A DNA stretch of 64,000 nt from Liolophura sinensis. Its lineage: Eukaryota > Mollusca > Polyplacophora > Chitonida > Chitonidae. The position numbers and the translations under genes were made by a program. The stretch's first letter is position 1. Every line of letters begins with the position of its first letter. Below, in pieces: positions 6,171 through 57,684 of the stretch. The notes beneath the pieces are model-generated. The model was given only the letters and a program-made list of their open reading frames with translations, made no database searches and was not told where the DNA came from. Where the stretch lies: NCBI RefSeq assembly GCF_032854445.1, contig NC_088302.1:35096191-35160190 (forward strand). The letters are read 5' to 3'.

Positions 6171-8164
6171 TAAAAAAAAGAAAAAAAAATCATTTATATT
6201 ACATTTATTGAAAACTGGTCTTCCACCAATATGGTGTGCAGATCTGTGTTGCATGTGGGAAAGTTGATTAGGATAAGGCCTGGCACTTCGGTTTCTTTCA
6301 CCAGTAAAACTTATATAAAGTGAAAAGTTCTTAGGTATGGCATTGAGCAACAATCTAATGAGCCAATCATTCTTAGGTATGGTCTTGAGCTCCAGTCAAA
6401 TGTGGTAGTTGTAGAAATTAACCATTGTGGTATACGCATTGAGAGGACTACGACTGGTCACAACTGTCAGCTTGGATGCAGCAGTGTGACCTTTAGCATA
6501 TAATGTATCACAATTGACTCATCTGGGTGAAAGCTCAGGTAGACTGACGGAAAAATAGAACATCTTCAACTCCAAGCAAACTGCTCAGTCAGCAGCTGGT
6601 GATCGAAAGCCACTGTAATATCCAGCAGATAATCCAATTCTCCGGATTTCTTGTAATAATAACTATGATATAGGAAGTCAAATAAACTGCGTATTTGTCC
6701 TTTTCAAAGAAATATATTTTGGGGAGTTTTGATGCATCTTAATTTCTATACATGGACTACCTACATGCAGGCTACCATCCAGCCAGGTGTCATCTGGAAA
6801 ACTGAAAATTGGTACAAAACTTAAGACCTCAAACTGAAACCTTGCTAAATATGCAGACAAGTTTTTATACGATACATCGCTTCGCTAACAAGGTCGTTGT
6901 TCTGCACTGTATCTTAAGCCCGGAGAATAGTTTTCAACTAACCTACCATCTGCCCAGTTTATGGCACGCTTTTTTTTCTCTGTTTTGGTATTCTGGCTTA
7001 CACATAAAAAGAGATGGATGCCTGTAGCTTGAACACTGCATTTACTATTTCAGCAGATCTTGATATTACCATGTATAGCATGGTTTCTGCAGCTGTTCTC
7101 ACAAACCCACCAAGCCCTGACCGATCAAGGAGACCCTCAGAATGGTAGTGTATTACAACCATTACTATTACAGGAGTGCATTGATTTTCCTTGCAATTTT
7201 TGTTGTAAATTTGTCCAACTTTGAACTCAAAAATATATTTTCCTTAACTTTGGGTGGTACCATGTCATACCTTCCCAAGAAGCTTGCACTTTTCTCTACA
7301 GCAGATCACTAAATCAACCTAGCATGACCAACATTTTTTTTTAGCTGTGTTTACTGGAAGAGAGGCCAACAGTTTATTACCTTGGTCACCCCCAAGGAGG
7401 TGGGTAATAACACTGAGCAAAAATTTTTCAGTTCTATCCAAAGCAAACAAAATTGTGATATATTTTAACTAGATACAAAATAACAGAGTAGAAATTTATA
7501 GTGTATCAACAACCTAAAATGTCTGGCAGTATTATCCAATCAGTGCGCCATGCTTCAGTTCAGAGTCAAATCTTGGGCCCAATTGTTTGAATTGCGCATG
7601 TGCTATAAACCTTGACTCACAGTTGAAAATAAACACACGAGTACACGTAACTCTTGTGAGACACACAAAAAGTGGAATTTTCATAACATCTATACCAGGT
7701 ATGAACGCCACAAGGCAGGACTGATCACCGAGGTATAAAGTTTGAACAGATGGCATAAATCAAAATAATGATTTGCAGATCCAATAAAGTTGGATTTGGA
7801 TTTAGAATATTTGATTTGCAACACATGTACATGACCCCTTTCCATTATGCAGGACTACTGTATTACATCTCTAAAGATGAGCATTTTTAAAGTGACACTA
7901 AAGAGTTTGCGTGTGCTTCTGAATTTGTATTTTACGTACATGTATGAAACTTCAGCTGAAGTGGAGTGGTTCCACCAAAAAATTCCACCCGAAAAAAAAC
8001 AACAAAACTATTTTCAGTCGGTTGCACGTGGACCGTTTTCGGATGATCCTGAACGATCCTTTCTGTCCATGTACATTAATGACAGATGAATGGTCAGATG
8101 TAGAGTTTTCAGTGTTGAGTGAGGAAACGTCCCTTTTATACACCACTGATCAATCAAAGTTCAA

Positions 8165-8825
8165 TGATGAAAGGTAGACTCTGTACGAAGATGTTGATTG
8201 GTGGAAGGTCAGCTCTATAAACTGGTCACTGATGAAAGGCCACCTCTGTACAAAGATGTGGACTGATGGAAGGTTGCCTCTATAAACTGGTCACTGATGA
8301 AGGGCCACCTCTGTACAAAGATGTGGACTGATGGAAGGTTGCCTCTATAAACTGGTCACTGATGAAAGGCCACCTATGTACAAAGATGTGGACTGATGGA
8401 AGGTTGCCTCTATAAACTGGTCACTGATGAAAGGCCACCTCTGTACAAAGATGTGGACTGATGGAAGGTTGCCTCTATAAACTGGTCACTGATGAAAGGC
8501 CACCTCTGTACAAAGATGTGGACTGTTGGAAGGTTGCCTCTATAAACTGGTCACTGATGAAAGGCCACCTCTGTATAAAGATGTGGACTGTTGGAAGGTT
8601 GCCTCTATAAACTGGTCACTGATGAAAAGGTCACCTCTGTACAAATATGTTGACTGATGGAAGGTTGACTGATGGAAGGTTGCCTCTATAAACTGGTCAC
8701 TGATGAAAAGGTCACCTCTGTACAATATGTTGACTGATGGAGGGTTACCTCTATAAACTGGTTACTGATCAAAGGTCACCTCTGTATAAAGTTGCTGCCT
8801 GTTGGAAGGTTGCCTCTATTCACCC
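8165..8825. repeat. 65-bp minisatellite, about nine units
   Basis: TATAAACTGGTCACTGATGA recurs at 8281, 8346, 8411, 8476, 8541, 8606 and, after a 16-bp expansion, 8687 and 8752, a strict 65-bp period. Each unit holds two related half-units (GGTCACTGATGAAAGGCCACC and GGACTGATGGAAGGTTGCC), so the 65-mer looks like a dimer of an older ~32-bp motif shared with the next array. Confidence 0.92.
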
Positions 8826-9290
8826 AGTTACCCTGGTGACTGAGGGAAAATGGCTTTTTCTACAGGTTTTACACTGGTGACTGATGGGAGCTCATTTTAC
8901 ACCGGTCACAGATGAAAAGGTCACCCATTTGAAATTCACATTTGTACACTGGTAATGATGGAACCTCATCTTTTTACACAGTCTCATTTACACTAGTAAC
9001 TGAGGGAAGGTAACCTCTTTACACTGGTAACTGAGCTGGCTAAGGAGGGTCACTTGTAAATGTACTCAAGTCACTGACGGAAGGTGCCTCTTTATGCTGG
9101 TGACTGAGGGAAGGTCACCTCTTTATGCTGGTGAGTGAGCTAGCTGGGGAAGGTCACCTGTAAATGTACACAAGTCACTGAAGGAAGGTCACCTCTTTAG
9201 GCTGATGACAGTTAGCTAGGGAAGGTCACTTTTACATGTACGCAAGTCAAAGACGGAAGGTCACCTTTTCACACTGGTGACTGTGTCCTC
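8826..9290. repeat. Degenerate minisatellite reaching into the EXOSC8 terminal exon
   Basis: Imperfect copies of GGAAGGTCACCTCTTTACAC with TGGTGACTGAGG repeat through this stretch at about 26-100 bp spacings. The last recognisable copy (about 9257-9286) is the coding end and stop codon of EXOSC8 read on the minus strand. The array therefore occupies the EXOSC8 3' UTR. Confidence 0.75.
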
Positions 9291-30118: not shown

Positions 30119-33100
30119 AATACTGTGGGTAAAAGAAGTGCTTATACTGAGGCTGAACTGTGCTGTCAGTATCAGCTCTTTGCGTGGTAAGGGTCAGTAC
30201 CTGATAAAGTGTACCGCTCTTTACTACACCAAGTAGAAATGAAAACTTTGTTTCATTAATGTATTATTTATGTCAAGGGATCAATTTATGTACATCAATC
30301 AATAATGATATACTTAATAGCAACATGACTTTGTAACGTCTGTCTGAAAATACCCATAAAATGTGCTTAATACTAATTATATAATTATATTATAATTATT
30401 ATCTGGGACTACTATATCTGTCACTAGTTTATTAGTCCCAGATATTATTTGCTCATAGCTCTGGTGGCCAAAGGATTGCTTTATGTCTAAACATGTTTGT
30501 GTATATTGAGAGTGGATCACATACTGGTGGCTCCAGCATTCAGATGAAAATCAAAACTGCAAACTGCATGAATACGTTTAAATTTGTATATATACAGTTA
30601 TTTATATAACGCTGAGCCGTTATGTGTATCTCATGAATTAAATCTTCACGGAGTTGACCGAAGTTCTAGTTTGATTTTTGTGTATGTAAGCTTGAGTTGT
30701 ACATCAAAGATGATGATGAGGAATTGTCATATACGTACTGTGGTCTCCTTGTGGCAGGTACTGTAGCCGCCTCTGAAGCATCACCACACAGATGTAGTAA
30801 CATTATACTGACACCATGCCAGTCTGTCCTGTTTCCTTACTTTAACCTCCAGGTGGTGAGAGGAAAACCGAAGCAGGAAAAAAGCACCGTCTCTGGTTTC
30901 ATATGTTTATATTTAACGTAAAAGAACAGTATCAAGTTAACCAGGCCAGTCTGAAGGGTGTGTAGATACAATGTACCTGAACAGTACTGGTAACCATTTG
31001 CATGTATTTACATGTAATTATGTAATTGTTTAACAATTTAAATTTTATTGTCTCCATTAATTATTTCACATTCATCGGCTGTTTGTGAGGATTTTATGTG
31101 TTTTTGTATATGCACCAAGCTGCGAAATTTGTATTTGTTTACATTGTGATAAACAAAAAATTATTTTACTGTTAATTTACACATTAGTTCAGTTTCACAC
31201 ACTGGCCAGAAGCCATCTTGTCTGTTCTCTTAAATGTAACCTTATATCCTGCGTTGTGAAAGTGGGCCCTGCTCTTGAAGCAAGTGATTAAGTTGTCCAA
31301 ACACATGTGTAGATCAGAGCACTGCTCATATAGCAGGCAGCTCAATTGGTGGAACATTTCCTTAATTTAAGGTCCTGTCTTTGAAGCCAGCCAACCATTT
31401 GGTGGAACACTTGTTTATAACTTTGGGCCCATTTAAGCTCATTGAGTTGGTAGAACATTTGTCTAAAGAAGACCTCTGCTCATGAAGAAAACTTTCCAGC
31501 TGGCAGAAAAAGTTTTGTAAAGTCCGCTAATTAGAACATTTGTGTAAATTAAGGTCCCTCTCTTGAAGCAAGCCAGCTAATTGATAGAACATTTTTGGAA
31601 ATTAGGGCCTGTCCTTGAAGCTAACAAACTATTTGGTAGAATCTTTGTCTAAATTAGGGCCCTGTCCTTGAAGCTAACAAGCTATTTGGTGGAATCTTTG
31701 TCTAAATTAGGGCCCTGTCCTTGAAGTTAACAAGCTGTTTGGTGAAATCTATCTAAATTATGGCCCTGTCCTGGAAGCTAACAAGCTATTTGGTGGAATC
31801 TTTGTCGAAGTTAGGGCCCTGGGCTTGAAGCAAAAAACATTAAATTGGTAGAACATTCGTCTTGTTTAGTTCCCTTTACGTGAAGCAAGCCAGCCATTTG
31901 CCAAAATTCATGCCCACAATGGCTAAAGTAGTCTTCTGAATAGTCATCTAGAATGACTGGCTCTTGGTCAATGAATTATCCGTGGATATCTTTCATTGGT
32001 AAATGTGTAAGCCTATATGTAGACCATTATTTAGAACCATGTAAGACACCAATCAAAAAAATCAAGACACAGCTGCTGCTGCTCAGAGTAACAAAAAAAC
32101 CAAAACCTTAAGAATCTGTTTAAAGTAAATATATAAACTTTACTTGGGTTGGTTTAACAGCTGCCAAATCTGGCAAGTACATGTATACACGAAGTAGAAA
32201 TACTGGTATAAAAATGACTCCACCAATAATACACTCACATTTCAGATGACATTCTACATACATGAATATATATTGGTCTAATTAATTCAGTACCCAGCGA
32301 CTGCTAGCAAGTATATTATGTATACACAGGGGAGATAACTCTGTCGCCCCAATCACATTAAAATTTGAACAGCTTACATGATAATGTCCATATAAAAGAT
32401 GCAGCTTTTCTTTATTGTTTCCAGTTATGCATATTATTACTGTCACATGGTCTAAATAAACTCTCACTCAATGCAATAACGATACAACTACTAACTGGAA
32501 TTTACTCTGATTAAGAGGAGTTTTAGTCCTGGCAGGTATATCACAAATTTGACTGAGCGATCGTGCATAGCTCTTGGAAGACCTGGTACAAGAACAGCTT
32601 GAATACAAGCATATATTCTCCTCGTTAAGAAACCGACTTCTGGTTATGTATCAATTCATCCCACTGATACTTCTACTTAAATCACAAATCTCTGAAGGCA
32701 CACAGGGAGGTTATGTATCGGTTTAAATATTGCACACTATACTGGCTTATAGAGGTTTTCAGACACTTTATATACGAAATGAATAAATGCAGCACAGACA
32801 AGGCACATTACTGTAATATTATTTCATTGAAATCGGATCCGCTGGACAGGTGTGGATGAATCAAAATGCCTCGAATTTTATTTCTCTCGCTATAAAATAT
32901 TTGATCATCATGCACCAAAATACTTCCGTACCAATATGCTCAACATCAAGTCTTATGCTGTCTGACTGGTTGCTTCAGGGATACCACGGTTGACAGTCTT
33001 GATATTTACTTAAAAAGTTCATTATGCAAAAACATTAAAAAAGTACAAGAATTAAGATTATGTTTTAAGAAACAGGTTCTTCCATAAACTGCTACCATCT

Positions 33101-33926
33101 GAGTGATTTTGAAAGAAAAATGGCACAGAAATGGTTCTCAAATGGTTTAAAAGCACCTAAAAACAATAACAAACTCTGGCTCTGTCTCAGTATTTTCAGA
33201 ACCACGAGCAACCAGCTGCGTGTTTAGCTGCGTAAACAACATACACTAAGCTACAAGTACAACCTGTTCAACCTAATTATAACAAGATCAGTCACATGCC
33301 CTTATTAACATGTAGTAGGGTGCTCAGATATGAATAAATAATTTGACCCCTGGACTACATGGCCACTGACTGTATAGCACTTACTATGCATATTAAATAT
33401 ACCTGTATCATCTTTAGTCCAAAACAGATTATCGCATTTAGAAGAGATACAGGTGTGAATTCATCAGTAAGGCAAAACTAAATAAGGCAAATTCCAGAAG
33501 GATATCCATAAGGATTAAATATTCATAAGAATGCGTTCTTTGTTGTGATTGTGACCCTTCTTAACTCTTCCATATTATAATGGTTATGATTTATCTTATT
33601 TGGCATGTTTAAAAGATGGCCAGAAAAAATTTGTGATCAAAAAATTTTAAAAAGATGTCCAGCATGTTTATGTCATTCATATACTGACCATTTATGAGAA
33701 GTTGAAAACTACATTTTCATCATGATGATATTCGAAAACTGGTTTTGATGTCAAGTTTGATTCGATGTGTTTCACCAGTTTCAAATCGAAGTTACCAGAA
33801 ATGATGAGTTGGAGAGATAAAAAGCGAACACGTATATGTTACACGATAAAAGCCCAAAGACTTGCTGAAATTGAGCAACCACCACACATCAGCATAAGAA
33901 AGTTCATGTAGGTACTAATCATCTAA
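30119..33926. other. Tail-to-tail spacer between ALG5 and ARHGAP6
   Basis: AT-rich DNA with no supported gene. It contains a family-B-like SINE scrap at about 30765-30850 (GCATCACCACACAGATG, TACTGACACCATGCCAGTC), the ~53-bp array at 31270-31890, and presumably the ARHGAP6 3' UTR in its right part. Confidence 0.5.
31270..31890. repeat. ~53-bp tandem repeat array, about ten diverged units
   Basis: CTTGAAGCTAACAAGCTATT then TGGTGGAATCTTTGTCTAAA and TTAGGGCCCTGTC recurs with TTGAAG landmarks near 31562, 31614, 31668, 31721, 31771 and 31824 (spacing 50-54). Older units extend left to about 31270. Central units are nearly identical and edge units diverged, as expected for unequal exchange. Confidence 0.85.
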
Positions 33927-34193
33927 CAGTGTCTCCTACTGCTACACCAGTGTCTCCAACTGCTACACCAGTGTCTCCAACTGCTACACCAGTGTCTCCT
34001 GCTGCTACACCAGTGTCTCCAACTGCTACACCAGTGTCTCCAACTGCTTCACCAGTGTCTCCTGCTGCTACACCAGTGTCTCCAACTGCTACACCAGTGT
34101 CTCCTGCATCTACACCAGTGTCTCCTACTGCTACACCAATGTCTCCTGCTGCTACACCAGTGTCTCCTACTGCTACACCAATGTCTCCTGCTG
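33927..34193 (-). repeat. 21-bp minisatellite built from the ARHGAP6 terminal codons
   Basis: Twelve full 21-bp units (33927-34178) plus a partial unit (34179-34193) run head to tail. On the minus strand the unit reads codons CAG CAG GAG ACA TTG GTG followed by TAG, which is exactly the ARHGAP6 ending Gln-Gln-Glu-Thr-Leu-Val-stop. Variants include CTG for TTG and CAG TAG for CAG CAG. The + strand is an open frame repeating SPTATPV only because the period is seven codons. Confidence 0.95.
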
Positions 34194-37100
34194 GTAAGAA
34201 TCATCGTTCTTATCTGCAGCCATTAGTTCCCAATTCCTCCACCTTTCTCGCTCACAGTCCAGATCAGAACTGTCACTACGCGAATCCTCAGAATTCCTCA
34301 CCCCTAGAGGACGTTGTCGAGAAGACAAGGGGCGCAGCTGGGATGAACTGGTAGATTTGGAGCCACTGTCTGATCGCTGTCGCCTCGGTGATGCCGAATC
34401 CCGATATGATGGCCGCGGAGATTCAGGTGGCTGAGTTCTGGGAGAGTTTGTGCTCGAGTTTCCTGAGCTACTTGACCCAGTGGTCATCAACCACTGTCCA
34501 GAACTATCTGACCCAACAGGGCTGGGCTCCTGCGATGTTAATGAACCCGAGCTCTTTCTCCGTCCCTCCAATGATGGCACGGTCAGTAAGTCATGAGAGT
34601 ACGGATCGGACCAGTAATTCTCTGACGAACCCACATGGCCAGTTTTTCCTCGGGCGTTAGTACTCGTTTTATCGTGAGACACTTTTAATTTGGGCATGCG
34701 TGGACTTCTCTGGGGCTTCAACACCCGGGAAGGAACACTGCTTGAGCTACTGTCCTCAGTCTGCATAGGATCACTGTCACTATGTAGTCGTGGCACTTCT
34801 AGCCGTTCACCTCCGGAGAAGTTCGCACTGTCTGCACTCTGAACCTGTCGCAGTGCAGCATGATTGGGTCGTCCCTGTGAGCGCCGACTGTCAAACATCG
34901 CCCGAGACCTCAGGCCCATGTCCATGTCAATCCCCGGGGAGTGAGGAAGAGAAGCAGTATCACTATCTTCAAACACACTGCTTGAGGTTGTGTCAGGGTC
35001 AGGCTCAATCCTGCAAACAACAACAACAATATATGAAAGCCTGAGGAATATCCTAAGTTTCACAATTAACAAACAAAGCAAGTCAATATTATATAAATTT
35101 ATAGTACTTATAAACGTATTTGAATATGTAATTCAGCACCAACCTCATTTGTTTTTTAAATATTAAATTTACAGATATCTTCCATATTCAAGAAATGTAC
35201 CAGAAGTGTTGACTATTTATCTTACAGGTACAGTTAAGGGAAAAAAATTATAGAACAACTTGATGTACAACAAAAAAACTGATATACATGTATACTTCAT
35301 TAAGTGCATCAATCTATATCTGATAAAAGACAGCTTTCAGAAGGGCACCTGCCACTTGCATTACCATGGTAGTGGCAGAAGCCAGGTAGTTTAAAAGAGA
35401 CAGTTCAGAGCAACCAAGACATAATGATTGTGAAATCCTTACCCATATTCAGAGGCCAGTTTCTTCAGGAGCATATCAGCCGTGTCTGGATCTGTCTCCA
35501 TTAACAACCTCACAATCTCATCTTGTAAGTCAGCTGGCACCTGAAGTAGAAACAAAGCACACTTAGAACATGTTGGTGATGCAAGCTTGATGTGAAATAC
35601 ATGTATATACAGTGTTGACTAAGTTCATGGGTACAAAAAACAAAACAAAAATGACACTGACTCTTAAAATGCTTGGGCTATGTTGAAAAACAGCAACTTT
35701 CGGGGGAGGAAAGCAGATCAAGGGGAATAACTTTTGTTCAAGTCGCACTAATGGGGATGACTTGCACTCAACGCTGACTCCAGGCAGAAAACCTGCTGGG
35801 AGGAAAACAGATGTGAAAACTGTTTTGGACATCGCTTTGGTAAGACTGGACATATTCCTTTCAAATTAAATAACTTAATCATACAACATCATGAAAGATT
35901 CAAGGATTTTTTAATAGTTTACTGGATGTTCACAGGGTGGGTAGATGGTGTGGATTATTTTCTCAAATCCCCATGAACACTTACATTGAACAGGTGTTTC
36001 ATGGAAGTCGATCATGTCCTCAAGGACAGCAATCACTTCACTCCTTTCCTCAGCCCGATCCATGTCCTCTACCACGAAGGACTTCTCACTCCCGACCTTG
36101 GCCTTGTGAAGGATGTTTGGTCCAAACAGCGTTGCCAGATTGTGAGAGTCCATCTTGTTGCCAGGCAACTGCAAAAGAGAAATGAAATCTTTACCCAGCG
36201 TTCTAAAGTTTTGGATTATATCATGTGCTTTGGTTCTTTTTAACTTATTCAATCAAATAGATATGATTTCAAACACTGAACTAATTTGATTGATTTTTTT
36301 TACTGGGGTTTCACACCATACTCTCTCTAGAATATTCCACTTTATTAATGGCCATCAGTTTTAGGACAAACTTTCCTGTATGTCTATATGCCAGTTTCCA
36401 GGTTCATGGGTGAAGAATGTAACAAAAATGTAACTTTCAGAACCACATATACTTGTTTTCTCACATCTCTAGTATATTTCAGTTTTCTTATAAACTTAAA
36501 GCATTAATTAAAGAAAAGAAAAAAAAACAGAAGAACTGTTCTTTTTCTTTAAAACTCAAGCAAAATCCTTTTTCTTACAGGTGTGACTGATAAAAAAAAA
36601 TCCTCAACGATTATGCAACTAATATAAACCTAAAGCCTTGGACTTTAAAATTTAGTGTTTTGCATCAGCATCCTCTTGAACGTGCTTTGTGCTTTGCTCC
36701 AAAAATATGTCAATCTCAGCATATTTGTCGTATGTGGGAAGGTCTGGCAGCAACCTGCGGATAGTCATGGGTTTCTCCCAGGTTTTGCCCGGTTTCCTCT
36801 CACCATAATGCTGGCCGTCGTCGTATAAGTGAAATATTCTTGAGTACAGCGTAAAACAGGCAATGAAATAAATAAATTAATAAATCAGACATCTTTCAAT
36901 TTTTCCAATGTACTTACAGTTAGATGTACATCCTAGGCAAGAAAATTCGAATATAACACAACTTTGGGCATTTAAAGGTACTCTATCTTTGTATGTTACA
37001 AAAGACGAGATAGACAAGTTAAAAAAGTACTGGTAATCAGAATTATATCAAGTCACGGATAGAGAATAAATTGTTGATTTACAAAAGGCAAAACCTTCAC

Positions 37101-40100
37101 GTTATTGACAGAATTATAAAGAAGGGACATTTCCTCAGAAGGAGACCCCACAAGATGTCTGACACACATGAACTGGAACACTTAAGTATCAGCAAATTTT
37201 ACTGCAATACAAAGCTGAAAATATTCACTTCACAGATGATCAAACTAGATTGTGGGAGATACCATCACTATTCAAAATTTACCCGTAGTTTTTCCCATAC
37301 ACTGCTAGATTTCTTCGTCATTAATCAACCAAATACCAACTCAAATTTTGTAAGTTAGCTGCTTGCTATTGATCCTCCAGCTTAATAGCTCGTGTTAACA
37401 ATGCGGAATTTCATGCATTTCTTTGACATCAAACATTTTATCATCACAGGCCTTTTTCAACTATGTTAATGTTGTCAATTAATCTGTGAATACTGTGTAA
37501 CATTCAGTGAAGCACTTTCACTGTAGGTTTCACGAGGCAGTCAAACCTCAAAGCAGTGTTCCAGAGGGAGATTATGCTAATCCACCTGATACTTGCTCTG
37601 ATAATGTTCATGCTTGGATGATCAGTATGCTTTGTATGATATCTCTGAGCTGCACAGTTCAATGTCACGGTGACTAAACACCACGGCCCACTATCGCAAA
37701 ACTTTAAAGTGAATTTTTAATAATTGTCTGCATAATTCACATTCACATAATTCATGTTATGGCCGTTTAACTGAGACAAATGTCAGTTCAAGAAAAAAGT
37801 TACAAGAAGTTTTATGCACAATGTTTCATGACAGAAGCTCCAGGGGTTCAAACCATACACCTTTTGTCATCAACATCACAACCGCCAGTATGTCTACATC
37901 AGTTCATCCTGACCTTCAAAATGCCACTGTTTTGGTTTTTTTATTTGTTTTCTATTGAATTTCTTTTTTGAAGGTTGTTTATTTTTGTTTCTATTTTTTC
38001 ATGTCTCTTCCTGCCTTTTTTTTTTAACTTAGCCTTATCCAAACACACACGCTGTCACAGGGGTCACTTAACCCTTCATTTTGCTGACATCAGTTGATTC
38101 AAACTTTATACATTCACGCACGCTGATACAGATCAGGGTGAGAATTCTTTTTTTATCTTCCTTGATCAAATGATTAGATACTTTACAGCTCTAGAATACA
38201 TGAAGACATGACGGATTATCTAGGTCATTAAAGATAAAGAACTGTCTCTAATCTCCCCTATTAATTTTGCCCTTTGACAGACATGCATTGAATTTTACAA
38301 GAAAATTAATTTCGTGGACAAATCTGCGATGGTTATCAGTATATTTGACTTATCCCATTACAAGATAATTATGTGTCCATGGATGTGAAAACACAGGGAT
38401 ATTGTTGGAGCCTCGCTGAACAAGCTCTTGTATCACACGGTGACTCTAACCTAGTACAGGAGCCAGTTGTTCGAAAGTACATTAAAAATTAAATTCAGTA
38501 TTAGCTGGAATAAAGCTCCATTTGAAATGTATTAAGATAACACTGATACATGTATTTAGTTTTAAGTCTGATGACAATTCTAATACATTTTTTAACAACT
38601 GCATTTTTGGTTGTCTGCTAAAGAAGAATCTTTTTAAAATGCATGCACCAAGTGCATACATGGTGATCTATCATCAAATTATTTATTTAGGGGAATATAA
38701 AGTCCTTCTTCAGTTATTCACTTACCCTAAAATACTATATATTTTGTCCATGACTAACTTGCCCATTTTTTCTTATTCCGAGAGTTCTCCTGATTTTAGT
38801 AAGGTGTTTTGAGGTTTGCTTGGAGCATGGGATGACATTTTACTAGAAAAGTGTAAATTTCAGCACCAAAATAATATTTTGTGACTTGTTTTTACCTCTA
38901 AAAATGCACTTTTGTGGGTGAAATTTTAAATCATTTAGGGTATGTCATGTAGATTACTGTACTTACATTATGTCATCATTATTTTCAGAACTATATGTAT
39001 GTGTAATGATGAAAGTTTTGAAGCGAGCCTTTCAGCTGATGTAGAACAAATTAAAGTGCCAAACAGATGTAGTTTAAATGTTGTATTTATTATTACCATG
39101 AAGGTGCCTCATCATAGCAGGCTAGCCCCAAAGCTAACATATTAACAGTGCTGCCTCACTGGAGCACCATGCTTTAGACACCATATATGACACCCCACTC
39201 AGCCATATTACACGTTCAGCCAACCAGTATCTGGCCTATCTGCTAATGCTGAGTGCCAATGAATCACAGTGAACGTCTTAAAATTTTTCAGTGCTTGACT
39301 CTTGCTGATTCTGTGAGCTCTGCCGATTTCCGAAACATGCTTAGAAGTTTGTTTGGAAGGAAGGATGAATTCGTACTGGGAAAAATGCATCTTTAAGCAC
39401 CAAAATTAATATTTCATGACATATATCTGCACATTAAAATGCATATTTCTTTGCACGGGAGGGAGGCAAAAGTTTAGATCATTCACCATAACTAGCATTT
39501 CAAAGTTTCCTGCTTACATTATGGATGTTCTAAACTCTCACAGCCAGTGGTGTGATTCTCACTGACTGATCAAATTATTTTCGGGACTTACCAGTTTGCC
39601 ATGCTCGTCGATGGTGTCGGTGGAATGTTCAACTACCTTGTTGAGGAATCGTAAGAGAGCCCAGAGGGTGTCTCTGTTTGGGACAGGAAGTAAGGCCACC
39701 AGCATCTTTACCGCTAAAGCTTGCTTGGTGCTCTCATATAGATCTACAAAGAAAATAGGAACAGACTAAGTTTTAAAGTGATAATTATTTTCCTTGGGGT
39801 TATTCTATCCACACTCTTAGCAAGCCAAAATAGCTTTACCTGAAACTAAAATAATTAAGGAGTACAACTTTCACATGAAGTGGGAAAGTTGGAGAATTTT
39901 GGTATTTAAAAAAAAAAATAATAATTCCTTAATTTTCTAGTCTAATCCTGAATTAAAAAGTCATGCGAAAACCAAGACGCAAATCAGAAGTCAAATGTAG
40001 GTACACATATACAAAATGCTACCCCTGTAAAGTTTATAAGTTAAATAAACTCACTTCTTGTGGCCACCAAAGGTGAGTAAAGGTCTCGGGTTAACAAAGG

Positions 40101-43100
40101 CTCAGGTAAATCCCTGAAATATTCCTTTAAGAGAGCAGCCACGTCATTGGGGTTGTGTTGTTCTCCTAACCTCACATCCTTCCCACAGTCAAACTCATCC
40201 CTCATCTGAAATCATACATATGCAACACGTTCATGAATATTCAAAAGTTCTAATGGATGGACGTGTTAAATGACAAAACTATACTTATAAACACTAAAAT
40301 GCATTGTTCAAGGCTTATCTACTCAGAGCATCAGTCTAATTGGCATGGTTTCTCTTGTACTCTTAACTGGTAACCCCTAGGTCTTTAAATCAGTCTTAAT
40401 TCAAAGCTTGACATTTAAAAGCGGGTAAGTAACAGATGTTGAGCAGTTATTGATTAATTACACCTGTCAGATAACTGTGGACATGGTAATTTATATATTT
40501 TTACTTTTTGATAATTTATTTTGTTACCTGTTTTGTTCTCTTCTTAGTGCTTCCCACTCTAAATATTCCCAAAGTCTGCAAACCTACAAAACAAAAGAAA
40601 CTCATAATTAAGAAAGAAAGAGATGATATATAGTGACACTTAATTGCATACAAGCAGTCCAGAGTTCAAATTTATCAAGCAACCTTTGTCATAAATTGCA
40701 ATTGCTTAAAGCGCTATTCTTAGAACAGGAAAGAACTCAAACTGCAGTTGGTAAATGTTCTTCAGCAAATAACGAGCATACAAATTTTAAACTTTCTTGG
40801 GAAAAACATTTTAATTGTAGTTTTGTTTGAATATTTGACTTAAGTCTTAAGACATTTGATAAATATGGGCTCTCAAAGCAACTAGGCAGAATTGGGTATA
40901 ATATTAAGTTTTTCAGACAAAAACTGCAAAATTCATTCAAAAGAAAACCAAATATAAACTTACATAAGCAACACAGAATTTTTGTGTTTGAACACTAAAA
41001 CTCTGGACAAAAATAGTTAAAAAAACTGTACTGTTTAAAAATATAGGCATGTGAACTTTTTGAACTTTTTAGCGACAACAAAAAAACTATGTAATCTATA
41101 TTGGTGTTCAATGCCATATATCTACCAGTACTCAAGAATTGTTCACTTATGTTATGACTCATATCCAGTGATTTAGCAGTATGGGCCTGCAAGGACCCTT
41201 TACTGCAATAAAGATATAGACAATATAAATAACAGTAGATGAAATATGACAGGTAAAGAAATAAGAGACACACAAAAACAAAGGCATGTGTACATAATCA
41301 ACACTGAATGTTGTATCAACAGCTACCCAGAATTTAGGCACATAAATAAGAGCCGAATGAACTGATAAAGTTCCAGACCACTGGGGTGTGTGGTGTCTTT
41401 ATTTCCATGGTTTTGACTACCCAGTGCCAGCTGGATCATTCCTTATTACTGCCAAAGGGTTACATAACAGGCCCTGGGAAACACACTAGTCTGTATGCCC
41501 CCAGACAGTCTAGCAAACTTCTGTATTTCACCCAAAATTTCGTCCATGGCTGAGTTACTCATTTAGCCTGTTTCTGAGAGTTTATTGATCTTAGAAAGAT
41601 GTTTTAAGATTTGTTTGGAAGGTATGATGATATTCTGTAGGAAAAATGGAAGATTCACCGCATTCTATGACTGTTATAGGTCGCCTAAAATGCATTTTTG
41701 CATTCGAATTTTTAGGACAGACGCGGTAAACGCTGGCTCTGACTACAGATCTGCTTGAAGTCCATGTTGATGAAACAGCAGTCAGAGGGATTTTTTGAAC
41801 ATCACTTTTACAGCTAAATGCCATGTGCTTCCTATCCACATTGCACCAAAGAACTGTTTGTTCTTGATTGCAAAGAAGCAAGACGAAGAGGCAAAAACTT
41901 GAATAAAACAACCAGAGAATTAATTATCTTTAAGAGAGATACTGTCAGTCGGCGCGTAAATCTTTGCACGTAATCGCTCTTTTTGTCTTTATCTAAAGCT
42001 GGATATTTATTTATTTACCTGGAGCTTGCCATATATCAAACTGGAGTCAGTCCCAATGTTTACGTTGTGTGTGCCAACGATGAGTTTCGGCATACATCCA
42101 ATCTGGTCTCGTTCACAAACAGCTAGGCTTTTCGAACATTGAACTTTTGACTTTATATATACTTCGAAATAGCTTCAAACAAGCGTCGACACCTTGCAGT
42201 TCTTACCTTGTACTTGTATCAAGGCTTTTTTACATCAAAGATGTGTCCAAACGTTTCAATATGTCTTGACTGAGCTTGATTTTGAGATGCGGCGGCTGTT
42301 GTTTGGCTCCGTTGTAAGAAACATTCAACATCAGAGCACACCATATGTCTAAAGGTTTAAGTGTCTAAAGTGGTTAAAACAGAATGTAAAAAGATCGACG
42401 CCATAGAGAATGTCCAAAAAGTAGCTTTCATCTACTTATAAAAGAAGTCATGTATATGTATGCGGGCCTATACCTTTCCCTACACCTGTTCACCCGATCC
42501 ACTTCACACATGCTGAGTAAACAGCTGAAAACGAAAGGAATTAAGTGCAGTTGTACTTATCCGGTATTCAGAAAATTGCCTATTGTGCATGCAAATTAGG
42601 TAAACTGAATACGTCACAAATGGACTACAGGGGCAATGCTAAACAGTCATCAAGCGAGTAGGCCTACAGCTCACCGTAAGTCTCTAGGTGTTTGAAACAT
42701 GTCTTGACGATCTGTGGCACCTGTGGGGCTGTCGTATTGAGGTGAAGGGGGGTTTCTTGATGACTGCTTAACGACAGTGACAGGGCGTCCAAGAGGCTTG
42801 AGTTGTACTTCCCGCTCTCAGATTCCGACAAGGAATCTGTACTTGCAGCTCGATTCTGAAAAGAAGGAAGGCATTAGACATTTGGATATCAACTGGAAAT
42901 CAGCTGCAAAGCTCCGTATAGATCCACAAAATCTGAACTGTTTCCCGGTAAGAAAAATATCCCTTGAAAGAAATTGAAGTCGCACAATCGTCTTGGGTCT
43001 TGGGACAATTCTTTGCACCTTTCTGGCTTCGTTCAAAACTGTTGATCGCTTTTCTCTCCGCGAATCCGTCAGAATTTCAAGCTTTAATTATTTTGTTAAC

Positions 43101-46200: not shown

Positions 46201-49200
46201 CTCTGGACCGCGCCCAGTGTTTATTAAATAATCCAAACATCAAAAGGTGAGTTTTGACAGGATCACCTGGTCCAGCCCATGTGTAACGGTACTGTAATCT
46301 AAAGGATTCGTGTAAAGCGTCGTGCATCTCTGCGAGCTGTCAGAAAGTCGCAACATCAGTCTAGCTTGTGTGGTACACCTTGTCATGAAGCCATTCTGGC
46401 AAAATCTGCGGAATGCTGGCTCAGAATTATGCTACCCATAAAAACTCTGTTAGTTCACATCCCACCGTCAGCTAACATTATTTACCGACATTCTAGAATT
46501 CCATAAGGAATGCGCTGCATGTATGATCTTCAGATGAAGATCGACAACAACAAAATGCAGCCCTGTTTTCTTTTCTTTTGGCATTGCCCTGTTTTATTCC
46601 CTCGGAAGAACTGTTACAGTTTCTCTCTGTTTAAAGTACCGTACAGTATAATGTTATCATATATACTAATAAACAATGAAAAATTTTGCATTGTTGCGTA
46701 ACAAACTTTTCCACCGTCAAAATACCACATGTATGGTTTCTAATTGTAAAGTATGCGCGCCTATGTCAATGTCAAATATGAAATAACTGGGCCTTTGCTG
46801 GTATCCAAAAACCATGCAAGCATGGCAGCTTAAGCGAGATAACTAAACGCCAAGGTACAAAAATCCTTTAAAATGAGCCATTTTATACATGAAAAAGTTG
46901 TTAAATGCATTAATTGCATCCGGCACCTTGTGAGTGAGTGAGTGAGTGCGTGGGGTTTAACGTCGTACTCAACAATTTTTCAGTCATATGACGACGAAGG
47001 AATCATTAGGGTGCATGTACGTGTAATGTGCCTCCTTGTTGCAGGACGGCACCTTGTGATCAGTCTTTAACCTATCCACATGTACAAGTGTTTTTTATGT
47101 ACTTATTTTCCTTGGCGTGTTCTAATGCCGTACTCAAGAAACTTTTCATGTACTCGATGGCGGTCATGTCAGTGGGTGGAAGAAAAGGGCGAAATGACGA
47201 AATAATTGCAGTCACCTTTTGTTTTGATGATTAAGAGCATGCGCTCCCAGTGCTTCCTAAAAACAAAAACAAACCTCACTAGCAAATATGTGCGCGAGTC
47301 ATTCCCAATGCCCTTTCAAAAAGAATACCTGCCAATTAAGTATAATAGGTAGTTGTTCTCAGCCTGTCTGCAAAGGATGGACAAACGGGTAAAGCGCACC
47401 CATGCACCTTCATTACTGCAACGACTTAACCCTGTAGCTATTTCCTCCGCTAATAGGCTACCCTTATTAAGGTGCAAGCATGTCTTGACAATGGAGAGAT
47501 GGATGGCTTTGTCTCAGAGGTAACATGTGTGAATACCTCTCCTCCAGTTCTAAACAGATGCTGTGAAGCAGGGAGGGGAAAGGAGTGTGCTGTACCAGCG
47601 AGTCAGGGCATTAAGCTGGGGGGTATACTGCAGAAATCGGTGCCAGAGACTCCGCCATGGCTCAAGACGGAACCTGGAGCAAGGCCAAGCACAGCAGAAA
47701 TCAACTTTTGACTGATAGTCAGAATGTCAGGCCGGGCAATCTCTACTATAAAACAGCTGGGTATACTATTTAACTGCAAGGAGAGCGAATGAAAACAAGC
47801 CCTAAATATAGATACCTGGCTAGTAACCCCCGAGGGTACTCTCGAAACTTATGTAATCTTTGTGGCCTCACAAATATAAATACATAAATATAAATATTTG
47901 CAAATGATATCAACTATATAAGAAGATGCTCTTAACGCTTGCTTCAGCAAATTCCGCCAAGGATATATGTTTAGTTTTACCGTTTCGTACGTAATGACAT
48001 CTTTCTAAATTTAAGGAAAGGGCACAGTGCTTGCCACTGACTGAGGGACTGCTGTGCTTTGTCCAGGTCATTAAACGTGTGCATAATGCATAAAATTTTG
48101 GAAATGTTGTAACAGCTCATTGGACACATGAGTCCAGTGTTGCCGAATAGCATTACGCCTTAAAATAAATGCGCGACGCAAAATACGTGTGTTCAGAAAA
48201 CATCCAGTTTACTTCATTGTTTGCTGTAAACAGTATTCGAAGTTTCATAAAATGATTTTCACTTTTTTGTAGATTTTTGTTGATGCAAAAACGTTTTAGA
48301 TGGTATATTATGAGGATCAGTTCTTGTCACTATGGTGAAGGCTGGCGCTGAACTCTTTGACACCAATCATAGGTCTGACGAAGCTTTAATGAACTGTTTG
48401 GAATACCAAATCAAATACCGTGAGAGAGTTTAAGAGGAAGAATGGTGATTATTCATGTTCTGACAGGTAGATGAAGGTATAGACAGGTGTCGCGGGTAAT
48501 ACAGACGAGCAATCTGTTGTTTTAACCCCAGTACATGTCATGGTACAGACCACGGATTGTTCTGGCAAAACCACCCACGGCGAGGCAAGACTTCTCAAGA
48601 CGACTCTAGCTGGTGTACTCATTGAGTTACTAGCGCATTATACTACTCTAACAGTTAGTGCAAACACCGATTGCGTACAGACACAGCAACTTCATATAAT
48701 AACACCATCTATACTACTACAGTTACTTTTATTTTTAGAATGCAGCATGATCATAAAAGTTAGCCTGTAGGCATACTAATCATGGTACAACTGGAATAGC
48801 TGGAATATGATAGTCCGTGGAACAAGTGCATGTGTTTAAGATTTAAGTCAACAGGTGCAATGTCTGCTTCATGTGCAGTGCGCACAGGCATTTGCAGGAT
48901 AACGGATAAAACAAGCAGGTAAAACAAGTGCACAGATGTACACAGAATGTGGCATTACATATTCTAGCTAAGGGCGCAGTGGTATGGGAGCGCAAATGAG
49001 CTTGTTAAAACGCTGCACTGAGGGCGCACATTTACCACACTGACAGAGCTGAGTAGAAACAGAGTTAGAAATAAGTAAAATCCCTGGAGGTAGAACATAG
49101 ATATTTCTATGTTGATGAACAATGCAGATATACGGTGGGGTAACCTCTGCAACATGAACAATGTAGATATACGCTGGGGTAACCTCTGCAGCATGAACAA

Positions 49201-50488
49201 TGCGGATATACGCTGGGGTAACCTCTGCAGCATAACCTATGCAGATATACGCTGGGGTAACCTCTGCAGCATGAACAATGCAGATATATGCTGGGGTAAC
49301 CTCTGCAGCATGAACAATGCAGATATACGCTGGGGTAACCTCTGCAGCATGGACAATGCAGATATACGCTGGGGTAACCTCCGCAGCATGAACAAATCCG
49401 TCAACTTCTGTCCAGCAGTATCATTGTCTTACCTCTCGAATCTTTGTCTTCATGGTTTTCCTTTAGGTTATCCAGCAATGTGCTAAGATTTGCAGAATGA
49501 GATTTACGCTTCAGCATTTTTAAAACTCTTTTCCCTCTTTTGACTTGAGTAGTTTCTGAAATGAGAAAACCGTTAATTTATTTATTTATTTGATTGGTGT
49601 TTTACGCCGTACTCAAGAATATCTCACTTATACGACGGCGGCCAGCATTATGGTGGGTGAAAACCGGGCACAGCCTGGGGAAAACCCACGACCATCCGCA
49701 GGTTGCTGCAGACCTTCCCACGTACGGCCGGAGAGGAAGCCAGCATGAGCTGGACTTGAACTCACAGCGACCGCACTGGTGAAAAGCTCCTGAGTCATTA
49801 CGCTGCGCTGGCGCGATAACCAACTGAGCCACGGAGGCCACTCGAAAAACCGTTGACATTTACATAAGGATCTGATTTTCATCTCAGCAGGTGATACCCT
49901 TATGTTACTTTATGGAAAGAAGAACTTTGCTTATTTCAGCAAACTTTAGTGAGACAGAAACAAAGCATGCACCAAATATTAGGTATATTTTATTCAGCCT
50001 ATTTTAAAAACATCATCACATCATCACTGGCATGCCCAGTAAGTAAAACATCACATCATGTTTGGGGAGAACGCCGTTGTCATTGGCCACCAGGAAAACC
50101 TTATCAATATTCAGGCTTGAATTAAAGATGAAGAAAATCAAGACTTAAATAAAGCAAATAGTGACTTCTGACGAAATAAAGGAAATAATGACTCAGGGAC
50201 TAACTAAAGTAAATCCTCGCTCACAGACTAAATAAAGCAAATACTGACTCCCAGACTAAATAAAGTAAATACTGACTCCGAGACTAAGTAAATAAATACT
50301 GACCTACAGACCAAATAAAGAAAATACTGACCTTTGGGCACACATATCTGGCATCCTAAGTTCATAGCCTGGAGCTTAGACAGGGCAATCTTCTGGAGGG
50401 CCAGTCGTTCCTTCTCCGAAAGCTGCAGCAAAGTTGTGCCCCTTAGGGTCACCCTCCGGCCACTCATACTACACCATGTGCACGACCC
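34173..50488 (-). CDS. ARHGAP6: Rho GTPase-activating protein, ARHGAP6-like, 11 downstream exons (5' partial)
   Basis: Stimulates GTP hydrolysis on a Rho-family GTPase (RhoA for the vertebrate protein). Exons: 50488-50332, 49555-49433, 43898-43778, 43358-43271, 42855-42675, 40583-40528, 40205-40055, 39743-39592, 36168-35985, 35533-35443 (or 35540-35443), 35010-34173; phases agree throughout. N-terminal block [14 protein letters not shown], then [14 protein letters not shown]. The RhoGAP domain spans 42720-35985, with arginine finger [10 protein letters not shown] (Arg at 40560-40558), [19 protein letters not shown], and [21 protein letters not shown] long Ser/Pro-rich tail ends [17 protein letters not shown] then ETLV, a class I PDZ ligand; the tail and the TWxSMSGR block match vertebrate ARHGAP6. 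The first exon at 50488 begins in mid-frame at an acceptor, so N-terminal coding is missing. Confidence 0.92.
36732..36885 (+). mobile_element. SINE family A, body and tail
   Basis: TATGTGGGAAGGTCTGGCAG, TTTCCTCTCACCATAATGCT, GTGAAATATTCTTGAGTACA, ending in AATGAAATAAATAAATTAAT. Located in the ARHGAP6 intron 36169-39591. Confidence 0.85.
39146..39265 (-). mobile_element. SINE family B-like fragment
   Basis: GTGCTGCCTCACTGGAGCAC, CACCCCACTCAGCCATATTA and AGCCAACCAGTATC match the family-B interior at 20150-20250. Both ends are lost. Confidence 0.5.
42019..42093 (-). CDS. Speculative alternative first exon in an ARHGAP6 intron
   Basis: On the minus strand ATG at 42093 opens 25 codons ([19 protein letters not shown], then IYGKLQ) ending exactly at a CAG|GTAAAT donor (42019/42018). 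The ending phase (0) does not fit the next ARHGAP6 exon 40583-40528 but would fit 40205-40055. No family recognised; it may be chance. Confidence 0.15.
43219..43258. repeat. (AT)n microsatellite
   Basis: About 20 AT dinucleotides with one AAAATAT interruption, 13 bp from the ARHGAP6 donor at 43270. Confidence 0.95.
43595..43685. repeat. Short GC-rich tandem repeat (~20 bp unit)
   Basis: GTGCTGTATGCACGGGTG and variants (GCGCTGTATGCACGGGTATG, GTGTGCTGTATTCACGGGTG) repeat about four times in an ARHGAP6 intron. Confidence 0.75.
46934..47046 (-). mobile_element. 5'-truncated SINE family B with 13-bp target duplication
   Basis: GTGAGTGAGTGCGTGGGG then TTTAACGTCGTACTCAACAA through TCCTTGTTGCAGGA is only the 3' ~113 bp of family B. 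It is flanked by perfect direct repeats CGGCACCTTGTGA at 46921-46933 and 47047-47059, the signature of target-primed insertion. Confidence 0.9.
49115..49395. repeat. 39-bp minisatellite, seven units, next to an ARHGAP6 exon
   Basis: ATGAACAATGCAGATATACG then CTGGGGTAACCTCTGCAGC repeats exactly seven times from 49115 to 49387 with few substitutions. The 39-bp period keeps a + strand frame of 125 codons open (units of 13 codons, [13 protein letters not shown]), but no upstream or downstream coding evidence supports a gene. The array ends about 40 bp from the end of ARHGAP6 exon 49555-49433. Confidence 0.92.
49575..49845 (-). mobile_element. Full-length SINE family A abutting an ARHGAP6 3' splice site
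   Basis: The minus strand has the tRNA-like head (the complement reads CTGCGCTGGCGCGATAACCA then ACTGAGCCACGGAGGCC), B box, body and a CAATCAAATAAATAAATAAA tail. Direct repeats AAAACCGTT at 49566-49574 and 49846-49854 fit a target duplication. It has the same orientation as ARHGAP6, and its tail lies only about 18 bp from the acceptor at 49556. Confidence 0.92.
50155..50331 (-). repeat. 28-bp minisatellite starting at an ARHGAP6 splice donor
   Basis: About six and a half 27-28 bp units run directly from the exon end at 50332. On the minus strand each unit begins with the 5' splice site sequence GTCAGTATTT or a variant (GTCATTATTT, GTCACTATTT) and continues CTTTATTTAGTCTG. Confidence 0.92.
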
Positions 50489-54315: not shown

Positions 54316-54494
54316 CTGTAAATGTATCCTTCAGCAAAATACTCAAAGTTAATTAATGCAATCCATATTTATTACAATCAATATTTACAAAGTGATTAGA
54401 TAACCAATCATAAGTCAATATTTTATACTCATTAGAGCTCTGAAGACGCAATGATTTCGGTTGCTGGCAAAGTCGACTTACGTAAAGATTTAAT

Positions 54495-54727
54495 TTTATT
54501 TATTTATTTACTTGATTGGTGTTTTACGCCGTACTTCAGAATATTTCACTTATACGACGGCGGCCAGCATTATGTTGGGAGGAAACCGGGCAGAGCCCTT
54601 CGGATGGTCGTGGGTAACCCCCGGGCTCTGCCCGTTTTCCTCCCACCATAATGCTGGCCGCAGTCGAATAACTGAAATATTCTTGAGTACAGCATAAAAC
54701 ACCAGACAAATAAACTAACAAATAAAT
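54495..54727. mobile_element. Head-to-head inverted pair of SINE family A 3' halves
   Basis: Left arm (54495-54598) is a minus-strand 3' half from its TTTATTTATTTA tail complement to CCGGGCAGAGCCC. The right arm (54605-54727) is a + strand 3' half from GGATGGTCGTGGGTAACC to the CAAATAAACTAACAAATAAA tail. The arms are long near-perfect complements with almost no loop, so RNA or single-stranded DNA would form a ~100-bp hairpin. Confidence 0.88.
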
Positions 54728-57684
54728 ATTATTGTGCTGTATATGATGACGTGTATGGTTCATATTGAATTGGTTTGTGACACATTTTTCACTATCAGTT
54801 ATAGCTCTCATGCCTGTAACTTTCCCATTGCAGACCATTGGTAATTTTCCCGTAACCAGCCCTGGTGGTGTGCATCAAGTATAAGGAAAAGCCCGATCAT
54901 GATAATCCGGTATTATCCTATAGATAATCCCCATGGCCACGTTGTTTATACATGCATCTATATTTAGGTTAAAGCAGAATCGCGTTAACGAAACCAAAAT
55001 GCTGTGGATGGAAAAAAACTGCAGCAATATATCACGGCATAAACATATATACAGTGTGCTAATGCGCATGCCTGCCAACAAGTCATTAGTGCCAAGTCGG
55101 TCATATTGTTTGGGGAATTACAGGCAGAAGTACACATTGTTCACATTGTTTAAAACTGGGTTAAACTATTCTATCCGTCGTCATTCACAATGATTTATAT
55201 AACACAAAAAACTCATGGTCATCTAAGGTAAACAATGCACTGCCTAAATGATGGGAAGTCGAGGAATAAAACTTATCCATGACAACCTAGGCTAAACATG
55301 ACACATGCAGAATAGACGCAAAAATACGTGATGTGGATAACTATAAAAATAGGAAATTATGTTTCTTGTTTTCTGGAATGTGTCACTGGTAGAGAAAGTG
55401 CCTACCTCTAACACATTGAAATAAGAACATTCACAAAGCCTCTTAACGGAGAAAACCACAGGTATTTCACAGGCATATGTAAAAGTGAGACGAGAAGTGG
55501 CTTTGTTGTAAATAAAAGAAAGCCAACTATCATGTCAGCGATTTTTATAAGATTCATTTTCTTCTAAGAAAAGATAATTCCATAGGCGATACACGGAAGA
55601 GCGGATTTCCTTATAACATATGTATCTAACAGGACATCTCTTGATTCTTTGTACAAAAGGGGACAAAAGATAAAATTGTAATTCCTGAAGTTTTCGCAAA
55701 AAAAAAAAAACCACTTTACTGACATTGTATGTTAATAAAGTCCTGACAATGAAATTGTGGATTTGAAACAAAAAAAAAAAAACGGTGGTAAAGGCGGAAG
55801 TAATGTCGTTATGTAGAAATAATGGAGGAAAAGCTAATAGAAAAGACTCGGGAAAAAATGTCAAAAATATCACTAACTAAATTGAAGTAATAAGTTAACA
55901 CAACCCTTACATTAGCATTAATAACACTGATGCAGATCTAATGTCACAAAAATGGGTTTCACATATTTAAGTACTTTTTCTTTCACCAGGTTAACGAGTT
56001 TTTTCTCGCATTATTAATCGAACTAGAACCAAAACATTGATGCAGCCAGCTTACATTGCAGGCCTATGACAACGCCTGCACGTGTATACACGAGAGTTCT
56101 TTAAATGACCCAAAACAGCTTGTGCCATTTGGCAGGAGTTGATGCAGACCAGGTGCACGGCGCTCATGTTGTAGGCTGTGTATAGGTTGCTGTAGTCGAC
56201 ACAGCCTGAACGTCGCCTGTAAACCTTTCTTTAAGGTTACCAGTAAGTGGTAAAACAAACAAGTGGTTAACAGAGAGTTAAAAACTGTCTACCTGGCTCA
56301 AACATAACCGATGCTTCAAAAAGCTGTTCAACATTTGCTATCCAAACAGCCGCCGGGTGTGTATGTGGAGTGTACACATGCTATATATGCATTTTGCATG
56401 CGAAGGTATTTACCGGTGCCATATATTCCCTTGTCAGATACACGCACATTGTCCACGAGAGTGCTAAACACGGGGGTATACAACGGATTAGACTATGCTC
56501 ACAACTGAAGAAAAACCTACAAACCTATCGTTCCGTTGTGCATGCAATCGTGCTTAAGAAACTTCTCTTAAGTGAATTCATTAAATACGTTATACGACTA
56601 AGTTGGAACTAGACACAATACAATAATGGCACTGCAATAATGGCAGTTGAAAACAGACACAATACAATACATTAATGGCGCTTCTAAAGTCAATCGCTGT
56701 GTAAATAACTATTGCAAAGATACTGTGACAGGTCCTGTGGGTTGGAGCTCTTAAAAGTCTCTGCCCAACCTCTTCATTTTGTTACCGGTGCAAACGAGGA
56801 GCTATTAAGGAAAAGTAGCCATTGAAACGTAGGGCAAGTTAAGTGTCTTTGGCATGTGAAGGGGTTGACACCATACGGTTTACCGTTGGGCACCTGTTGA
56901 TATAACTGAGGTTGAATAAACCTTGTCAGTCTTTCACTGCCTGTCAGCCTTATCCCATCTCAGGTTCAACCAGCCAAGCCTCCGTAACAAAACAGGTAAT
57001 AGTTCTTTGTGCGCCAATAAAGGCGGCTAAATGGAACGCAAATATTAGTGTTGGAGCTTTAACAGTATCAGTGTCAAGTGAGAATGTGGAAGGAAACAGA
57101 ACGGCATAAACACTGGATATACAAAGTTATTTCAAGTCAATGACTGCCACGGAGCCGTAAGGAATCTTGACAACAATCAAGTCGCAGGAATACAAATATA
57201 CAAATACAAGTAAAGTTCAACCGTGAGGGCAAAAGCGGAATTGTATTGTTACTCACAGGAACGTGGATAATTCGTCTCGATATCAACAAAATATCTCGAG
57301 TATAAGTCACTACTAGCCGACACGTGTTCCGCTGACCAATGTTTTCTAATGTGTAACAACATCAACATGCACTCTATACACAGATAGCTTTGTTATACGG
57401 CCAAACACCTATACATCACGCGTCGGACACAAGCTCTTTCATGTACCGTTAGTTTCAATCAGAGCAGGCAGGTGAAACCTGAAAATACATATCAGAAAAT
57501 TGCAGTTATCATCGCTGGACAAAATGTATACAGGCTCCGATCGGGACAGCTGATATCATTGTTATTGAGAACAGGTCGGAATTCTGCGCTTTGATCTTAA
57601 ATTCAGTTGGATAAAATGTTCAAACCATTTATACGGGTGACTGTAGTTACAATCAACTAATTCCCTACGTGATACATCTGTATG

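What the first reader, a model, noticed from the sequence alone, without database searches (positions are those of the whole stretch)
33927..34196. A stop-codon minisatellite: the last six codons plus stop of ARHGAP6 tandemly reiterated about 12 times
The coding end (Gln-Gln-Glu-Thr-Leu-Val-TAG, 34193-34173) is itself one 21-bp unit of the array that follows in the 3' UTR. The PDZ-ligand codons are thus the founder or a member of the repeat. Because the unit is seven codons and contains a stop, every copy restates an in-frame ETLV-stop. A mutation of the first stop, or readthrough, would extend the protein by another unit with a new ETLV terminus. Gain or loss of units therefore cannot easily destroy the PDZ ligand. 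This is an unusual, possibly self-buffering gene end.
Basis: seen in the sequence. Interest (0 to 1): 0.82.

Follow-up and report, generated by a model that had tools for sequence, protein, structure and literature searches.

The report
Gene-end repeat copied from coding tail

Summary
On the minus strand, 34193-33927, a 21-bp unit is repeated 12.7 times, and unit 1 is the coding end QQETLV-TAG. The gene encodes a RhoGAP (Pfam E 3.4e-43), most likely the ARHGAP6 orthologue. Its tail matches my recalled human ARHGAP6 tail, ETLV included, at 16 of 34 positions; passages in two papers fit. The PDZ ligand therefore looks older than the array, and the coding end was probably the founder. The assembly is the chiton Liolophura sinensis.

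The proposed mechanism is only partly right. Unit loss keeps ETLV in 223 of 252 modelled deletions. But loss or readthrough of the first stop gives ETLV-X-Q-stop, because the next unit reads CAG-TAG: 8 of 8 sense substitutions lose the ligand. Strictly, 9 of 13 units read xxETLV-stop.

Arrays are common here: 26 in 114 kb sampled, 11% of the bases. Best reading: an ordinary slippage or unequal-exchange minisatellite seeded on a coding end; tolerance of unit loss is a by-product. The exon D-E join is in frame only with a later, weaker-looking donor, so transcripts are needed.

The parts
34173..34193 (-). Unit 1 of the array = last six codons and stop of the gene (QQETLV-TAG); ends in ETLV, a class I PDZ-ligand type
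33927..34193 (-). 21-bp tandem array, 12.7 copies: 12 full units and a decayed 13th
   Evidence: TRF; unit tables
34167..34169 (-). TAG at codon 2 of unit 2: second in-frame stop, two codons after the first (TAG CAG TAG)
   Evidence: readthrough or stop loss would end in ETLV-X-Q, not in a new ETLV
34110..34193 (-). Units 1-4: an exact 42-bp dimer twice (ABAB); a recent-looking duplication that involves the coding copy or its neighbours
34173..35010 (-). Last coding exon F (838 bp), acceptor TTTGCAG; Ser/Pro-rich tail ending [26 protein letters not shown]
   Evidence: one match in own genome at E <= 0.01
35443..35540 (-). Exon E ([19 protein letters not shown]...), phase-compatible with F
35985..36168 (-). 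Exon D, end of RhoGAP domain, read to the donor T|GTAAGT; the join to E is then out of frame by one base. With the later donor CCA|GTAAAC (exon end 35923) it is in frame
39592..39743 (-). Exon C, RhoGAP domain
40055..40205 (-). Exon B, RhoGAP domain
40528..40583 (-). Exon A, start of RhoGAP domain ([18 protein letters not shown])
42675..42855 (-). Exon A0, leading into the RhoGAP domain (...[16 protein letters not shown])
32411..32882 (-). Two AATAAA hexamers (first base at 32882 and at 32416): candidate poly(A) signals, which would place the array in the 3' UTR
   Evidence: consensus match only

Best explanation
The array is a minisatellite that arose inside a gene. The conserved end of a chiton ARHGAP6 orthologue (QQETLV-stop) was duplicated in tandem by slippage or unequal exchange, and the copies now follow it downstream, probably in the 3' UTR. 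Shown: the array, its phase with the coding frame, the identical 42-bp blocks at units 1-2/3-4 and 8-9/11-12, and the abundance of such arrays in sampled parts of this genome. Inferred: that ETLV is ancestral, so that the coding copy is the founder; that the array is transcribed; and that only unit 1 is translated and kept by selection for PDZ binding. The unit is 21 bp (3n) and carries the stop, so loss of whole units leaves a working unit 1 in most cases. That is a passive consequence and protects only against a kind of mutation that the array itself makes likely. It does not protect against loss of the first stop in this allele.
For: TRF array and in-frame unit 1. RhoGAP domain at Pfam E 3.4e-43. 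102/193 identity to recalled human ARHGAP6 RhoGAP; best of the solved structures is ARHGAP7 at E 3.3e-17. Tail 16/34 identical to the recalled human tail, ETLV included. NET1 and ARHGAP6 share their last four residues (PMC3206016 passages), and FETLV with one mismatch finds NET1 and ARHGAP6 (PMC5031328 passages). Identical unit blocks 1-2/3-4 and 8-9/11-12. 26 arrays in 114 kb from 19 sampled places, 11% of bases; 8 in this window. The only other match in the own genome, a 21-bp array on C10 about 70% alike, is at the level chance predicts (0.8 expected).
Against: The human letters were typed from recall after I had seen the window, so orthology and the age of ETLV are not settled by tools. 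Unit 1's TTG is shared only with unit 3, so the coding copy may itself have taken part in recent exchange and is not demonstrably the oldest sequence. At the strong donor the D/E join is out of frame by one base and stops after ...PVQCAS; all seven exons join into one open frame of 573 residues only with a later donor, so a full-length product is not proven. No relatives of this genome and no transcripts could be searched. The genome search skips very common words and scored 2 candidates, so it does not exclude further copies.
Confidence: 0.8

Rival explanations
1. Self-buffering gene end: the array is kept by selection because every unit can serve as the coding end, a reservoir that re-seeds the PDZ ligand through unit loss, conversion or stop loss.
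For: 223 of 252 in-register deletions keep ETLV. Within units 1-12 the 12 bases coding ETLV vary at one site only (TTG/CTG, synonymous), while the other 9 bases vary at 5 sites. Units 1-2 are exactly repeated as 3-4.
Against: Stop loss loses the ligand in 8 of 8 sense changes. Units 2, 4 and 13 carry a stop before ETL. Without an array, this class of deletion would not arise. The 1/12 against 5/9 contrast rests on about six changes that were copied between units, so it is weak. Arrays are abundant in the sampled genome.
Confidence: 0.07
2. Tandem stop codons: the array is kept as a run of in-frame additional stops that limits readthrough (14 in-frame TAG in units 1-13, the second only two codons after the first).
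For: 14 TAGs counted, and TAG CAG TAG at the end. Additional stops are reported as maintained by selection in yeasts (PMC1088959 abstract) and enriched in many but not all single-celled eukaryotes (PMC6764699 abstract).
Against: One extra stop would do; twelve units are not needed. Extra stops follow automatically from copying a unit that contains TAG. Conservation between species was not tested.
Confidence: 0.06
3. The repeat came first: a satellite of other origin inserted at the gene end and supplied the stop and ETLV by chance.
For: A second 21-bp array exists on C10, with a unit matching at 16 of 21.
Against: The same tail ends human ARHGAP6 (recalled). About 0.8 such matches are expected by chance among the genome's arrays.
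Confidence: 0.04
4. The array codes in another frame or on the other strand (AVGDTGV, or mucin-like ATPVSPT), reached by alternative splicing, frameshift or an antisense gene.
For: Four of six frames are open through the whole array and a fifth is broken once (translations).
Against: 28% of 5,000 random 21-bp tandem units leave five or more frames open. I found no start, splice or domain evidence, but did not search for it beyond the listings.
Confidence: 0.02

Closest known systems
Minisatellites in genes and UTRs (coding VNTRs, 3' UTR VNTRs)
   Same: 21-bp unit, about 13 near-identical copies, duplications of 2-unit blocks, overlaps a gene
   Different: The unit straddles the stop codon and restates the coding end; polymorphism was not tested
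Tandem (additional) stop codons of yeasts and ciliates
   Same: An in-frame stop follows the first stop within a few codons
   Different: They arise here by repetition of a whole seven-codon unit; no evidence of selection
ARHGAP6 (Rho GTPase-activating protein 6), whose C-terminus was reported to bind MAGI1 PDZ domains (PMC3206016, passages)
   Same: RhoGAP domain, ERERW..WEL-like tail, ETLV end (human letters recalled)
   Different: Whether human ARHGAP6 has any repeat at its stop was not checked

Membership tests
ARHGAP6 orthologue | RhoGAP domain | tested here: met
   PF00620, E 3.4e-43 on the joined exons A0-D
ARHGAP6 orthologue | Closer to ARHGAP6 than to other RhoGAPs | tested here: inconclusive
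   102/193 to recalled human ARHGAP6; of 36 solved sequences matched, the best is ARHGAP7 at 66 bits and none is named ARHGAP6. Reference typed from recall; no tree made
ARHGAP6 orthologue | Conserved C-terminal ETLV PDZ ligand | tested here: inconclusive
   Present in the window; human end recalled; consistent with passages, which do not print the human peptide
ARHGAP6 orthologue | Intact open reading frame through domain and tail | tested here: inconclusive
   At the strong donor D to E is out of frame and stops after PVQCAS; with the later donor (exon end 35923) all seven exons give one open frame of 573 residues ending ETLV
Minisatellite | Head-to-tail repeat of a unit of roughly 10-100 bp, beyond chance | tested here: met
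   Score 429; 20 shuffles reach at most 63
Minisatellite | Copy number varies between individuals | not testable with these tools
   One assembly, no reads; no second haplotype among the matches
Selected additional stop codons | Second in-frame stop within a few codons | tested here: met
   TAG CAG TAG
Selected additional stop codons | Conserved across species | not testable with these tools
   No related genome can be searched here (one search states that G000 has no relatives)
   0 of 8 sense substitutions end in ETLV
   223 of 252 in-register deletions; the 29 failures are 4 each to units 2 and 4 and all 21 to unit 13

The most novel reading that the evidence does not exclude
The gene end is an evolving switch for PDZ binding. 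Unit exchange keeps regenerating a coding QQETLV-stop, while unit-2-type exchanges (ending ...SYQ-stop) or readthrough of UAG-CAG (ending ETLV-X-Q-stop) make ligand-free forms. Individuals, or transcripts of one individual, would then differ in whether this RhoGAP can be tethered by PDZ scaffolds.
Probability: 0.05. Interest if true: 0.65.

Novelty: new member of a known kind. Interest (0 to 1): 0.3.

Why it matters
It is a clean natural example of a minisatellite probably seeded by a conserved coding end, with the stop codon inside the unit. It gives a testable rule: a 3n-bp unit that carries the stop makes unit loss nearly harmless, but not stop loss. It also suggests that repeat turnover in array-rich genomes can reach functional C-terminal motifs. 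It does not change views of how such repeats work.

Tried and rejected
Repeat family of wider distribution: the array plus short flanks was searched in the own genome. The only other place is a 21-bp array on C10, about 70% alike (5 overlapping matches; 2 candidates scored). Unit against unit it matches at 16/21, where about 0.8 such matches are expected by chance among an estimated 5,300 period-21 arrays. That estimate rests on 1 of 26 sampled arrays having period 21. Rejected as related.

RNA structure of the array: z -5.74 against 200 dinucleotide shuffles, none as stable. But 34 of 300 arrays built from the same 12 units with their columns permuted fold as well or better, so the strong fold follows largely from repetition. 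Rejected as a signal.

Antisense or alternative-frame coding: open frames are common for random 21-bp units. Rejected for want of evidence.

Paralogous copy of the last exon without the array: none among the matches in the own genome at E <= 0.01 (7 candidates scored).

Literature: ten searches were answered. Four of them looked for a minisatellite or tandem repeat that contains a gene's own stop codon: 20 of 119 papers listed; 10 of 10; 3 of 3; 3 of 3. No listed title is plainly such a case; I saw listings only, and passages of PMC3152781 and PMC1273636, which report none there. The library holds open-licence PMC papers only, so absence from print is not claimed. Searches (human PETLV end; PDZ and readthrough) gave nothing that I used. 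Passages of PMC8428372 repeat the NET1/ARHGAP6 statement of PMC3206016, with other PDZ numbers.

Full report
What is there. On the minus strand of the window a 21-bp unit is repeated 12.7 times at 34193-33927 (TRF score 429). In 20 first-order Markov shuffles of the window no repeat of period 10 or more scored above 63. Unit 1 is CAG CAG GAG ACA TTG GTG TAG. It is in frame with a last exon at 35010-34173 that has a good acceptor and ends ...[26 protein letters not shown]-stop. The repeat does not extend upstream: the 21 bases before unit 1 match the 13 units at only 5-6 of 21.

What the gene is. Joined exons A0-D give a RhoGAP domain (PF00620, profile positions 1-146 of 148, E 3.4e-43). The recall was made after seeing the window, so it is a lead. 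Two papers, read as passages, agree with it. In one, NET1 and ARHGAP6 share their last four residues, and the ARHGAP6 C-terminus is reported to bind MAGI1 PDZ domains (PMC3206016). In the other, a search of human C-termini with FETLV, one mismatch allowed, returns NET1 and ARHGAP6 (PMC5031328). None of the 36 solved sequences listed is named ARHGAP6; the best is ARHGAP7.

Whose genome. Contig lengths of the held genome (among them 96,433,062; 37,343,639; 28,395,274; 27,489,247; 25,057,479; 19,479,325) and its 632 contigs equal those printed for a chiton assembly (PMC11068029 passages). That assembly was published as Liolophura japonica and corrected to L. sinensis (PMC12441733, whole text). 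The held total is 609,464,459 bases against 609,495,693 in print.

Which copy founded the array. If ETLV ends this protein in both chitons and vertebrates, the coding end is older than the array, and the array was copied from it. The alternative is that an unrelated satellite happened to bring the right codons in the right frame. The own-genome search gives no source: the only other match is a 21-bp array on C10 with a 16/21 unit match, about what chance predicts (0.8 expected). That search skips very common words and scored 2 candidates, so it is not proof of absence. The coding copy is not static. Units 1-2 and 3-4 are an identical 42-bp block, as are 8-9 and 11-12. Unit 1's TTG is shared only with unit 3, so exchange has recently included the coding copy or its neighbours.

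How it behaves. I modelled deletions in register between unit 1 and each of units 2-13 at 21 breakpoints: 223 of 252 keep a protein ending in ETLV. The 29 failures are 4 each with units 2 and 4, which carry TAG at codon 2, and all 21 with the decayed unit 13. Gains of units should leave unit 1 as it is (reasoned, not modelled). By contrast, 8 of 8 sense substitutions of the first TAG give ...ETLV-X-Q-stop, and the ninth (TAA) remains a stop. Readthrough would end the same way. The small deletions I tried in unit 1 give low-complexity tails of 47 (one base) or 90 (two bases) residues after the upstream context (4 cases).

Is the rest of the array constrained? In units 1-12 the twelve ETLV bases vary at one site, silently, while the other nine vary at five. 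This is in the direction of constraint. But the copies are not independent, about six changes underlie it, and I know of no way in which units 2-13 would be translated. I give it little weight. RNA folding looked strong (z -5.74), but 34 of 300 column-permuted arrays fold as well or better.

How ordinary it is. In 19 places of 6 kb across ten contigs I found 26 arrays of period 10 or more and score 100 or more, covering 12,501 of 114,000 bases. The window has 8, covering 2,763 of 64,000. The assembly paper predicts 28,010 protein-coding genes, so some arrays touching a stop codon are expected even if selection removes most (inference; not counted). That the period is a multiple of three needs no special cause (5 of 26 sampled arrays).

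Result against a complete gene. At the strong donor T|GTAAGT (exon end 35985) exon D leaves one base over, while exon E is open in phase 0; the literal join ends ...[11 protein letters not shown]-stop. There are two ways out. One is an extra base near the end of exon D: shifting the reading by one base there would give a human-like ETLFN (compared by eye with recalled letters), and HiFi coverage was 14X. The other is a later donor, CCA|GTAAAC (exon end 35923), with which all seven exons make one open frame of 573 residues ending ETLV. Transcripts would settle this; I could not search any. The 5' end of the gene was not modelled.

Verdict. This is a real and well-read observation, probably a minisatellite seeded on a conserved coding end and shaped by ordinary turnover. 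The buffering idea is half right (unit loss) and half wrong (stop loss). My literature searches for a gene whose array contains its own stop (listings only, open-licence PMC papers) showed no plain case.

Noticed in passing
window 35923-36168 and 35540 (minus strand, exons D and E): The join of RhoGAP exon D to exon E is out of frame by one base at the strong donor (35985); either an extra base in the assembly or allele, or use of the in-phase later donor (exon end 35923), which would add 21 residues absent from the recalled human protein.
   Followed up: partly
window 3266-3957, 4589-4686, 8161-8819, 8999-9266, 31532-31838, 49115-49395, 50141-50331: Seven other minisatellite arrays in the same 64 kb (basic periods 28 to 109, with higher-order forms); about 11% of 114 kb sampled elsewhere lies in such arrays.
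   Followed up: partly
L002 1070-1887 (G000 C10): A 39-copy 21-bp array (AGTTGTAGCTACAGGTGAAGC), 16/21 like the gene-end unit; consistent with chance. A 16-bp array and a 58-bp array lie within 0.8 kb of it.
   Followed up: partly
window 33875-34354 (+): A 159-codon open frame (stop to stop) runs antisense through the array with a mucin-like ATPVSPT repeat; expected from the unit's composition.
   Followed up: partly
window 49602-49859 (-), 54494-54697 (+), 54536-54874 (-); also 36649-36828 (+) and 49628-49909 (-): Related open frames (...HNAGR.RI.EIF..., and QQPAD..GF.PG.ARF..TIMLA.VV) recur on both strands in the listings, which suggests a dispersed repeat element.
   Followed up: no
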